In this document: one piece after another, positions 42,733-45,505 of the stretch
Layout: the number at the start of each line of letters is the position of its first letter
Position numbering within the stretch: the first letter of the stretch is position 1
The notes under the pieces: generated by a model
Databases searched by the model: none
What the model was told of the DNA's origin: nothing
The model's input: the letters and a program-made list of their open reading frames with translations, nothing else
Assembly: GCA_029907475.1 (NCBI GenBank)
Contig: JARYLU010000022.1
Location: 1-45,505, forward strand
Direction of reading: 5' to 3'
Source: Bacillota bacterium
Lineage (GTDB): Bacteria; Bacillota; DSM-12270; Thermacetogeniales; Thermacetogeniaceae
Length of the DNA stretch: 45,505 nt
Made by a program: the position numbers and the translations under genes

Positions 42733-42754
42733 CTAACTTAAAGGGGTGCCGTTT

Positions 42755-43813
42755 TTGGAGGAAGGTTTTATTACTCTTGTTCCACTGGACAAGGTTGCAC
42801 CCGGAATGAAAGCGGGGCGCACAGTATATGACGAAAAGGGCCGGGTGCTTTTGCTCGCAGGGCAGGAACTGGATAGTAAAATCATCAAGCGGCTGGCACG
42901 GTTTGGCGTGATGTCCATGTATCTTCAAATTCCGGTAGAGAACGAGAATGGTTGCCGCAACGGAGGTCATCCAGCGGATCTTATAAGGGGAGCGACCCGC
43001 CAAAAGGCTATTCATGAAGTAAAAAAGGTTATGTACCGAGTAATCAGGCAGAAGAATACATCCATCAGAAAACTGGAAAAGGTTGTACTTACAATCATCA
43101 ACGAATTGTTAGCCCTTGACGAAATCATCATTAATCTTATCGATATTCGCACCCTTAACCACTATGATTTTTGCCACTGCGTCAATGTATGTGTCTTTTC
43201 TCTGATAATTGGGATTTCTATGGGATACAACAGGGAATCCTTGCTGAATCTTGGCATGGGCGCGATTTTGCATGATCTCGGCAAACTCAAGATCCCGCGT
43301 AAAATTCTTTTGAAGCGGGAGCCATTAACCAGCGAAGAGTATGCTGCAGTGGTGCGACATACATGGTACGGGTACGAAGCGTTGAGCAGGTACCCGAATG
43401 TAGATCAAAGGGCGAAACAGGTTGTGCTGCTGCACCACGAAAGGTTTAACGGACGGGGCTACCCGTTTGGGTTGAGGGGAAAAGCAATTCCCGATTTTGC
43501 CAGAATCGCAGCTGTTTGTGATGTCTACGATGCGTTGATTACAGACCGCATTTACCGGAGGAGGTATTCTTTTGCAGAGGCGAATCGCATCCTGGTTGCG
43601 GATCAGGATTATTTCGATCCAGAAGTAGTTACCATACTGCTGGGGCATGTATGCAATTACCCTCCGGGAACACTTGTAAAGCTGGATTCCGGCCAGGTTG
43701 GAATCGTAACAGAGACATTGGCCTGGGAAAGACGCCTGCCGGCAACCCTTGAGTCTGGCATCAAAATCGTTGATCAGGGAATCGGGCAAAAATTGATCGA
43801 GGTATTCAAGTAA
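42755..43813 (+). CDS. HD-GYP domain protein, probable c-di-GMP phosphodiesterase
   Basis: About 352 residues from the TTG at 42755 (AAAGGGG 8 nt upstream); the in-frame GTG at 42746 overlaps that site. The N-terminal about 100 residues resemble a DUF3391-like or regulatory beta region (LVPLDKVAPGMKAGRTVYDEKG). The HD-GYP domain follows with ILHDLGKLKIP (HD metal ligands), HTWYGYEAL, HHERFNGRGYP (the GYP motif) and DVYDALITDR. Expected to hydrolyse cyclic di-GMP, lowering the signal for surface attachment. Followed 87 nt later by the DUF342 gene; the two may share a function in motility or surface behaviour. Confidence 0.9.
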   Translation: MEEGFITLVPLDKVAPGMKAGRTVYDEKGRVLLLAGQELDSKIIKRLARFGVMSMYLQIPVENENGCRNGGHPADLIRGATRQKAIHEVKKVMYRVIRQKNTSIRKLEKVVLTIINELLALDEIIINLIDIRTLNHYDFCHCVNVCVFSLIIGISMGYNRESLLNLGMGAILHDLGKLKIPRKILLKREPLTSEEYAAVVRHTWYGYEALSRYPNVDQRAKQVVLLHHERFNGRGYPFGLRGKAIPDFARIAAVCDVYDALITDRIYRRRYSFAEANRILVADQDYFDPEVVTILLGHVCNYPPGTLVKLDSGQVGIVTETLAWERRLPATLESGIKIVDQGIGQKLIEVFK

Positions 43814-43900
43814 TTTTATCATCAATCGTACTTTTTAAAAATGTTCAGGTTTGACCATTGGCATGGGAACTGCCTGAAAAAACAGGAGGTTGATTGGGCA

Positions 43901-44948
43901 ATGGAGTGGCTTGATAGGAAACCTTCCGATTGTAAGTGGACGCAAGTAATACACACACACACGGGGGGGGGGGGGGGGACCAGAAGATAGCGACGGCAAA
44001 GTTGCCGTCATCGGAGGCAAATTAAAAATTTGGAACCCCCGTGGCCGGGGACGCTACCCGACTGTTACCCCGGGAAAAGATGTTCAAATTTACCTGAACG
44101 GTTTACTGGTAAAAGATACCGTCGTGGTTTGCGAGGAAGACGAAATCGAAATTAGATTGCCGTCCGAACCGGCAGAACTCATATACCAGGTGAGAGTAAG
44201 TGAAGACAAGTTTACCGCCTTTATTAAGGTCGAAAAGAAGGCGGGTAACTGCTACTGTCTACAAGACACTGAACCAGGCACCAGTATTGTTTTAAGAACC
44301 ACTAAAAAAGAGGAAAAGGAAGCGGCGTTACCCCCGATTGACCACATCATCGAGGACATAAAGCGACAGGGGATAGTTTTTGGTATCGACAGAGACGCAG
44401 TATCCAGAGCCTTTACCGTAGATTGTGGGAAGGATGTAGTTATTGCACAGGGGATACCGGTTACGTCGCCTGTGGATGAAAAGGTCGAGTATATTTTTCT
44501 GAACAACCAGGAAGAAACTGAGGAGAAGATTACTCTGGAAAATGCAGATCGTGTCGATTACCGGGAGCGAAGAAAATATCTTTGCGTCGAGCCAGGCGAA
44601 GTTCTGGCCTTAAAGCATCCGCCACAGTTTGGGAAACACGGGATAAATGTTTACGGGGAAGTAATAGAACCCCCCTTGCCAAAATTCCAAGAGATTCGGG
44701 TAAAAGACAATGTCCGCCTGATAGAGGCGGGAAAAAAAGCGGTTGCCGTGAAGAGCGGGAGGCCGGTCCTGAAAAACAACTTCCTCTTTGTTTTGCCTTT
44801 ACTTGTAATTGAAGGCAATGTGGACATGACTACCGGCAACGTCAGTTTTAAAGGAGATGTGGTTATCAACGGTAATGTTCAGGAGGGAATGAAGGTACGA
44901 GCTACAGGAATGGTAGAAGTATTCATCCGTGATCGGTTTACCAGTTAA
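43901..44948 (+). pseudogene. DUF342/FapA-like protein, out of frame at a G16 tract and 3'-truncated
   Basis: An ATG at 43901 with AGGAGGT 10 nt upstream opens MEWLDRKPSDCKWTQV and runs into (AC)6-G16. With 16 Gs the frame stops a few codons later; with 15 or 18 Gs it joins the long frame PEDSDGKVAVIGGKL that continues to 44948 as a DUF342 protein (FapA N-terminal region, then beta-helix strands such as IEGNVDMTTGNVSFKGDV and VINGNVQEGMKV). The C-terminal part stops abruptly at about 44924, where IS sequence begins; FapA proteins are normally about 450-600 residues. Translation restart from a GTG at 44124 would make a partial protein. FapA-type proteins act in flagellar assembly, but the role here is unknown. 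Confidence 0.75.
43951..43978 (+). repeat. (AC)6 followed by G16: candidate phase-variation tract
   Basis: Simple-sequence tract at codons 17-26 of the DUF342 frame. The current length puts the gene out of frame; a change of -1 or +2 G restores it. Length read from an assembly may be unreliable. Confidence 0.8.
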
Positions 44949-45505
44949 TGTAATGTGCTACCATTAAATCCCTGGAAATTAGCCGCTTTCACCCAAGGTG
45001 ATAAGAGACGCTTACGGTTGACGTTAGGGTCGATTCCTTCACACATGAAGAAACAGATAGCCAAAAAGGGATCATCTTCTACCCCGGCAACATCAAGCAC
45101 ACGGTTCAGCAAAAAGGGAGCGGCAGAATAAAACGTCTCAGCCCAGCGCAGAGGAGTAAAGCGTTCGCTCTTTTCTGGAGCCAGCAACCGCATGTGGTTC
45201 AAAAGCCGGTGGCTGACCACCAGTGTCAGCATGGCCACCAGCACCAGCGCCTCTACCACATCATCCTCGCCGCTGGAGATCACATCAAGCTTATAGAGGC
45301 GCTTCAGCTCTTTGAAAACCAGTTCGATGCTCCAGCGTGCCCTGTAAAGGAGCGCCACATCCTCTGCCGCAAGCTGGTCCGGGGAGATGTTGGTGAGGTA
45401 GAGGTGATATGCCTTGGTTTCCTGGTTGAGTACTCCCACCAGGCGGTAGACCTCAGTTGCCTTTGAGGATTTGCCCTTGTAAGACCTGCGGTTGAAGGAG
45501 ACCTC
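44925..45505 (-). mobile_element. Insertion sequence, IS4-type (continues past window end)
   Basis: It replaces the DUF342 coding sequence from about 44925. Only one end is in the window, so terminal repeats and target duplication cannot be checked; the left boundary is inferred from loss of DUF342 similarity. Confidence 0.7.
44945..45505 (-). CDS. IS4-family transposase, C-terminal part
   Basis: The frame is open to the last base of the window (187 codons visible), so the N-terminus and first catalytic acids lie outside. The YREK signature is intact: YRARWSIELVFKELK (Y-x2-R-x3-E-x6-K), supplying the third catalytic acid of the DDE transposase. Ends in GFNGSTLH. Its stop codon overlaps that of the truncated DUF342 frame on the other strand. 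The intact reading frame suggests a potentially active copy. Confidence 0.88.
   Translation of the reverse strand, partial: EVSFNRRSYKGKSSKATEVYRLVGVLNQETKAYHLYLTNISPDQLAAEDVALLYRARWSIELVFKELKRLYKLDVISSGEDDVVEALVLVAMLTLVVSHRLLNHMRLLAPEKSERFTPLRWAETFYSAAPFLLNRVLDVAGVEDDPFLAICFFMCEGIDPNVNRKRLLSPWVKAANFQGFNGSTLH

What the first reader, a model, noticed from the sequence alone, without database searches (positions are those of the whole stretch)
43901..44948. Candidate phase-variable DUF342/FapA-like gene with a G16 tract
An ORF with an excellent Shine-Dalgarno enters an (AC)6-G16 tract at codon about 17-26 and is out of frame by one base; -1 or +2 G restores a long DUF342 protein. Homopolymer contingency loci are typical of host-adapted bacteria and uncommon in environmental Clostridia. 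The neighbour is a c-di-GMP phosphodiesterase, so ON/OFF switching could affect surface or motility states.
Basis: partly seen in the sequence, partly recalled or inferred. Interest (0 to 1): 0.7.

Follow-up and report, generated by a model that had tools for sequence, protein, structure and literature searches.

The report
Poly-G frame switch in FapA-like gene
A run of sixteen Gs near the start of a motility- and signalling-type gene looks like a random on/off switch built from slippery DNA, kept in a sister species of this environmental bacterium, although in this particular strain the gene is also cut in two by a mobile element.

Summary
In detail: G16 at 43963-43978, after (AC)6, lies between a Shine-Dalgarno/ATG (43884-43903) and a long FapA (DUF342) frame, out of register by one base. 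It is not chance: of 299 G-runs of 7 or more in the genome, only 7 reach 9, and 4 of those are 15-21 long. The decisive new evidence is comparative. The only other genome carrying the locus, a same-genus species (85% DNA identity), has G13 at the same site with an intact FapA gene behind it, out of register in the same way. Codons after the tract evolve under purifying selection (dN/dS 0.13-0.21), so the gene was used while carrying the tract. The genus lacks MutS1 and MutL, the repair that normally suppresses slippage. A slippage ON/OFF switch is therefore the best reading. Similar long G-tracts in the family (Thermacetogeniaceae) and beyond often sit beside c-di-GMP or chemotaxis genes. Mechanism: known kind. 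Host and target: unusual. No read data were available to show actual length variation.

The parts
42746..43813 (+). HD-GYP (predicted c-di-GMP phosphodiesterase) gene just upstream, 355 aa; HDLGK and HHERFNGRGYP motifs (N where the recalled consensus has D)
   Evidence: (PF13487 HD_5, E 4.6e-29)
43884..43889 (+). Shine-Dalgarno AGGAGG, 11 nt before the ATG
   Evidence: same feature 10 nt before the ATG in G001
43901..43990 (+). ORF as assembled: ATG, 20-codon leader, tract, stop (29 aa) = OFF frame
43951..43962 (+). (AC)6 dinucleotide run; absent in the sister species
43963..43978 (+). G16 tract, the proposed slippage switch; G13 at the same site in G001
43979..44923 (+). 5' part of the FapA/DUF342 gene (extra N-terminal domain, FapA_N, first 42 positions of the FapA solenoid), open frame
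   Evidence: dN/dS 0.129 over 314 codons
44914..44923 (+). 10-bp target duplication TAGAAGTATT, repeated where the gene resumes on contig C50
44924..45505 (-). IS4-type element inserted in the gene; contig ends inside it; transposase C-terminal part 44945-45505
   Evidence: PF01609; IS4 family, below NCBIfam cut-off

Best explanation
The tract is a translational contingency switch of the genus. Ribosomes start at the Shine-Dalgarno/ATG and cross the G-run. Replication slippage adds or removes single Gs, so that about one tract length in three (G12, G15, G18) joins the 20-codon leader to the FapA frame (ON) and the others end early (OFF). Absence of MutS1/MutL should make slippage frequent. When ON, cells would make a FapA-type protein (extra N-terminal domain, FapA_N, beta-solenoid) that works with the neighbouring HD-GYP protein in c-di-GMP-linked motility or surface behaviour. 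In the assembled strain the switch is OFF and the gene is additionally broken by a recent IS insertion, so the locus is functionally off here whatever the tract length. Shown: tract, frames, sister-species tract, selection, missing repair genes, IS. Inferred: slippage in the population, ON/OFF expression, cell function.
For: Same-site long G-tract in the only other genome with the locus (G13, G001) although the flanking leader has diverged (39 of 73 aligned columns identical) while the protein after the tract is 91% identical. Intact FapA behind the tract in G001. dN/dS 0.129 (314 codons) and 0.213 (259 codons) for the two gene parts, HD-GYP neighbour 0.150. No usable start codon between tract and 44124, though that stretch is conserved. 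Four tracts of 15-21 in one genome against a near-empty tail. MutS1 and MutL below cut-off in G000 (99.65% complete), G001 and G002. Nine of 30 FapA loci, these two included, carry an HD-GYP motif in the held flank.
Against: No reads or second isolate were available, so length variation is unproven. Both assemblies are OFF for the strong start. FapA homologues outside the genus have no tract (28 other loci examined, longest G-run seen 7). Loss of MutS1/MutL does not track tract number: G003 and G010 also lack both and have no tract, while T. phaeum (G006) has both genes and three tracts. Two of the other long tracts of G000 are short in G001 (G9TGG and G8), as generic drift in length would give. 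The gene is IS-disrupted here.
Confidence: 0.66

Rival explanations
1. Neutral slippage: a genus without mismatch repair lets G-runs grow anywhere; the FapA tract is a tolerated accident, not a selected switch. It would still flip the frame, without benefit.
For: MutS1/MutL absent; tracts also in places with no clear target (C31 intergenic, C43 near an IS110-type gene); G000 is longer than G001 at all three comparable sites.
Against: Only 4 of 299 runs of 7 or more have grown beyond 9; the FapA tract is long in both species with a conserved gene behind it; two MMR-lacking genomes of a related genus have no tract of 12 or more.
Confidence: 0.2
2. Dying gene: the tract and the IS are two lesions of a pseudogene.
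For: IS insertion splits the gene in G000; the HD-GYP gene of G001 has a one-base shift near its end.
Against: dN/dS well below 1 on both sides of the IS site; no internal stop in about 600 codons in G001 or in either G000 part; perfect 10-bp duplication suggests the IS came late.
Confidence: 0.07
3. The real tract length differs from the assembled one and the gene is simply in frame (homopolymer miscounted).
For: Long G-runs are hard to sequence; published work on Bifidobacterium found record and real lengths to differ (PMC9187656, passages). G000 also differs from G001 by one G in a G6/G7 run that breaks its GGDEF gene.
Against: Two separate assemblies both hold a long tract at this place and both are off by one. 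A miscount changes the state recorded, not the presence of a slippable tract.
Confidence: 0.1
4. Expression without DNA change: transcript slippage or ribosomal frameshifting on the G-run gives a fixed fraction of in-frame product.
For: A 16-G run could slip during transcription; alternative in-frame starts exist (GTG at G14/G17 in G000; ATG/GTG at G13 in G001).
Against: The common -1 ribosomal slip moves to the wrong frame at G16 (a skip of one base, or two -1 slips, would be needed; my reasoning). Lengths differ between species.
Confidence: 0.08

Closest known systems
Poly-G contingency loci of Campylobacter, Helicobacter and Neisseria (in-frame tracts such as lgtG)
   Same: Long mononucleotide G-run inside a reading frame; length mod 3 sets ON/OFF; C. 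jejuni likewise lacks mismatch repair (PMC3928116, passages; PMC3639595, passages)
   Different: Host-adapted Gram-negatives with mostly surface antigens as targets; here a Clostridia-type anaerobe of the Thermacetogeniaceae and a FapA gene; switching not demonstrated
Bifidobacterium breve sortase-pilus G-tract switch (bbr_0113, bbr_1889)
   Same: Gram-positive; G11/G12 run between an N-terminal and a main ORF; slippage joins them; shown by deep sequencing (PMC9187656, abstract and passages)
   Different: Pilin target, gut commensal; tract shorter
C. difficile pdcB/pdcC phase variation of c-di-GMP phosphodiesterases
   Same: Phase variation in Clostridia acting on c-di-GMP (PMC9286219, search listing; review PMC11868660, passages)
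   Different: Site-specific DNA inversion of promoters, not slippage in a homopolymer
FapA of Vibrio / FapA of Borrelia
   Same: Same family name; FapA is described as a flagella assembly protein that binds dephosphorylated EIIA-Glc in V. vulnificus (PMC6877527, passages); gene in flagellar operons (PMC11607428, passages)
   Different: Here a second FapA paralogue beside HD-GYP, not the one beside the flagellar-type sigma factor on C4

Membership tests
Simple-sequence-repeat (slipped-strand) phase-variable locus | Long pure mononucleotide tract, beyond chance, in or by a gene | tested here: met
   G16; 4 tracts >=15 in 3.01 Mb, tail otherwise empty
Simple-sequence-repeat (slipped-strand) phase-variable locus | Tract length decides whether the gene is read in frame | tested here: met
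   ATG in frame at G12/15/18, out at G16 (G000) and G13 (G001)
Simple-sequence-repeat (slipped-strand) phase-variable locus | Tract differs in length between related genomes with the gene otherwise conserved | tested here: met
   G16 versus G13, 91% protein identity after the tract; n = 2 genomes
Simple-sequence-repeat (slipped-strand) phase-variable locus | High-frequency, reversible length change within a clonal population | not testable with these tools
   no reads or sister isolates held
Simple-sequence-repeat (slipped-strand) phase-variable locus | Expression follows tract length | not testable with these tools
   needs bench work
FapA / DUF342 (PF03961 with PF20250) | FapA_N and FapA beta-solenoid domains over cut-off | tested here: met
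   G001: 119.8 and 99.7 bits; window part: 121.1 and 55.9 bits, solenoid only positions 1-42 of 272
FapA / DUF342 (PF03961 with PF20250) | Acts in flagellar assembly | not testable with these tools
   this locus is next to an HD-GYP gene; the C4 paralogue lies behind a sigma-factor gene
HD-GYP phosphodiesterase (neighbour) | HD and GYP motifs | tested here: met
   HDLGK at 176, HHERFNGRGYP at 230; one residue departs from the recalled consensus
IS4-type insertion sequence | DDE transposase, terminal inverted repeats, target duplication | tested here: met
   PF01609; ends CATCCGTGATCGG / CATTCGTGTTCGG read by eye; 10-bp duplication; NCBIfam IS4 score below cut-off

The most novel reading that the evidence does not exclude
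Thermacetogeniaceae and some other environmental thermophilic Bacillota run a poly-G contingency system aimed at their second-messenger and chemotaxis circuits (FapA, PAS-GGDEF-HD-GYP, PocR-GAF-HD-GYP, chemoreceptors) rather than at surface antigens, so that a clone of free-living cells spreads its bets between swimming and settling. One genus has gone further and dropped mismatch repair.
Probability: 0.25. Interest if true: 0.75.

Novelty: new member of a known kind. Interest (0 to 1): 0.55.

Why it matters
Homopolymer switches are studied almost only in host-adapted pathogens and commensals, where immune escape is the usual explanation. A conserved example in an anaerobic, apparently free-living Clostridia-type lineage that lacks MutS1/MutL, placed on a gene next to c-di-GMP machinery, would show that bet-hedging by slippage also serves motility/settlement decisions outside hosts. 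The cultured relative T. phaeum, with three such tracts in a finished genome, makes this testable.

Tried and rejected
Promoter-spacer reading of the C43 tract (TTGACA-5-G17): no convincing -10 at any spacer length (best 3 of 6 matches); left as a weak lead. Defence-system reading of the C43 operon: only weak MzaA matches far below cut-off. MMR loss as the sole cause of the tracts: does not track tract number. Two-colour sequencing artefact: unlikely, since the run has matching flanks on both sides in two genomes; but 7 of the 27 tracts lie at contig ends and 4 beside N-gaps, and these were dropped. Reading the GGDEF-locus tract (C15) as an in-frame switch: rejected, the run ends at a GTG start and looks like leader/ribosome-site DNA. 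First protein scan of genome contigs found no relative. Solved-structure search: no match. Literature: the listings of searches showed no paper on homopolymer phase variation in Thermacetogeniaceae or of a FapA/DUF342 gene; the one paper holding both 'Thermacetogeni' and 'phase variation' is a methylation-tool paper (listing only).

Full report
What is there. The window is contig C22 (bases 1-45505) of a 3.01-Mb, 99.65%-complete genome in 114 contigs. A Shine-Dalgarno AGGAGG (43884-43889) precedes ATG 43901; after 20 codons and an (AC)6 run the sequence enters G16 (43963-43978). As assembled the ATG frame stops at 43990. The long frame after the tract is shifted by one base and open to 44948. 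Its protein matches FapA_N (121.1 bits) and the first 42 of 272 positions of FapA (55.9 bits). In the ATG frame, tract lengths G12, G15 and G18 would join leader and FapA; a second, weakly placed GTG start fits G14 or G17.

Chance. In the whole genome there are 299 G-runs of 7 or more on either strand (155 + 144), 7 of 9 or more, and 4 of 15 or more: G21 on C15, G16 here, G15 on C31 and G17 on C43. The other three are exactly 9 long; nothing lies between 9 and 15. This two-humped distribution is what slippage-expanded tracts look like, not random composition. The 8-mer search inside the window alone would not have shown it (10 overlapping hits against 6.8 expected).

At 44923/44924 the gene is interrupted by an IS4-type element. 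The 25 bases 44924-44948 recur on two other contigs near their ends (C25, C35). The gene resumes on contig C50, directly after a copy of the 10-bp sequence TAGAAGTATT that precedes the IS here, and encodes the rest of the protein (86% identical to the sister species). So in this strain an in-frame tract would yield only a truncated protein (about 348 aa at G15, my arithmetic) without most of the solenoid.

The sister species. Of 41 genomes searched by DNA, own included, 5 matched; apart from G000 itself only G001, of the same genus, matched over the locus (85% identity); the hits in the other three genomes were 49-60 bases. G002, the third genus member, is 76% complete and showed only the other FapA. 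G001 has G13 at exactly the same place, followed by an intact FapA frame. Leader and intergenic DNA have diverged (leader: 39 of 73 aligned columns identical), whereas the protein after the tract is 91% identical. G001 too is off by one for its Shine-Dalgarno ATG; unlike G000 it has weak in-frame alternative starts at its present length. dN/dS between the two genomes (Nei-Gojobori, own script) is 0.129 over 314 codons after the tract, 0.213 over 259 codons after the IS site, and 0.150 over 294 codons of the HD-GYP gene. The FapA frame was therefore under purifying selection while the tract was present. Since no ATG, GTG or TTG lies in that frame between the tract and 44124, while this stretch is conserved, translation must come through the tract.

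Outside the genus. A protein search of 61 genomes found FapA-type relatives in 39. Thirty loci were fetched and examined; in the printed N-terminal regions only the two genus members have a G-run over 7 (for L089 and L094 the frame shown there was not the FapA frame, and L095 gave none). The tract is a genus-level feature. Nine of the 30 loci, the two included, have an HD-GYP motif in the held flank, eight with both motifs and one with the second only; a FapA/HD-GYP neighbourhood is thus recurrent.

Mismatch repair. MutS1 (TIGR01070) is over cut-off in 16 of 21 genomes and MutL (TIGR00585) in 16 of 21. The five without both are the three of this genus (G000, G001, G002) and the two of genus g2 (G003, G010); G002 and G010 are incomplete (76% and 84%). 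In Neisseria, loss of mismatch repair raises mononucleotide switching 100- to 1000-fold (PMC3639595, passages), and C. jejuni, which lacks it, has frequent switching in homopolymers (PMC3928116, passages). Against a simple link: G003 and G010 have no tract of 12 or more, and G006, with both genes, has three.

Other long tracts. The pattern of 12 or more Gs was found in 15 of 61 genomes, 27 tracts in all: 18 in the 20 genomes of the family and 9 in the other 41. Dropping 7 at contig ends (G004 x3, G036, G038, G048, G051:C24) and 4 next to N-gaps (G012 x3, G007:C99) leaves 16: 11 in the family and 5 outside. Of these 16, 7 lie by c-di-GMP or chemotaxis genes: FapA in G000 and G001; PAS/GGDEF/HD in G000 (two ORFs split by a G6/G7 difference); PocR-GAF-HD-GYP in G006, where G18 lies near the 3' end of the frame; chemoreceptor genes downstream in G006 and G015; and HD plus chemoreceptor in G040. 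The G004 copy of the PocR-GAF-HD-GYP gene also runs into a G-run, at a contig end. The other 9 have other or unclear neighbours, including Spore_III_AA in G009. The background share of such genes was not measured, and the grouping was made after seeing the data. At two other G000 tracts the sister species has only G9TGG (GGDEF locus, 93% identity) and G8 (C31 locus, 97%); for C43 no counterpart was found in G001. The FapA tract is thus the only one seen long in both. G006 has exactly the published size of Thermacetogenium phaeum (2,939,057 bp; PMC3551663, passages), so the family is taken to be Thermacetogeniaceae (family name recalled).

Wider. Tracts behind a start codon are therefore not unique. 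They include an EAL-domain gene in a Kyrpidia MAG and repeated leader-G-tract loci in a Heliobacteriaceae MAG.

Mechanism and limits. Best reading: translational ON/OFF by replication slippage, established in the genus, with a later IS hit in this strain. Shown: sequence, frames, homologous tract, selection, missing repair genes, IS. Inferred: length heterogeneity, protein switching, effect on c-di-GMP-linked motility. The review of phase variation read here in passages gives inversion (C. difficile pdcB/pdcC) and epigenetic switching (E. coli) as links between phase variation and c-di-GMP (PMC11868660); a slippage-based one in free-living Clostridia was not seen in the listings of the searches named under Tried and rejected.

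Noticed in passing
L011:10001-10021 (G000:C15:53037-53057): G21 directly before the GTG start of a PAS/GGDEF/HD-GYP gene; the sister species has G9TGG there; inside the gene G000 has G6 where G001 has G7, which splits the GGDEF part off.
   Followed up: partly
L013:2814-2830 (G000:C43): G17, five bases after TTGACA, upstream of a 987-aa protein with a sigma-70 region 4 match (weak MzaA similarity) and a 238-aa protein without a Pfam match; no counterpart in G001.
   Followed up: partly
L012:9943-9957 (G000:C31): A9G15 between genes, near a PIN-type gene; A7G8 in G001 with flanks 97% identical, well above the 85% at the FapA locus.
   Followed up: partly
L061, L058, L064, L055, L056: Recurrent layout: Shine-Dalgarno, start, leader of roughly 11-14 codons, poly-G, short frame; three lie upstream of chemoreceptor genes, two end contigs. 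L055, L056 and L058 share an upstream box resembling GGAATTAAGnATnTTATGTCAAA. Unexplained.
   Followed up: partly
L062:4002-4019 (T. phaeum) and L057 (G004): PocR-GAF-HD-GYP gene with a G-run near its 3' end (G18 in T. phaeum; G12 at a contig end in G004): length changes would swap the C-terminal tail.
   Followed up: partly
L119, L140, L155, L168, L175: In one Heliobacteriaceae MAG (isolate Gx481_bin9) several near-identical leaders (MREVFKNGCNAGTAPLS-like) run into G14-G18; an FTLAE/FTLVE prepilin-like motif follows in at least three. A possible phase-variable pilin family.
   Followed up: no
L161 (Kyrpidia MAG): G23 shortly upstream of an EAL-domain (c-di-GMP phosphodiesterase type) gene.
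   Followed up: partly
G000, G001, G003 (whole genomes): No MutS1 and no MutL over cut-off in near-complete genomes of two genera of the family (G002 and G010, incomplete, agree).
   Followed up: yes
[quoted passage not shown]
   Followed up: partly
L021 (G001), HD-GYP gene: One-base shift near the 3' end changes the last residues of the HD-GYP neighbour in the sister species.
   Followed up: no
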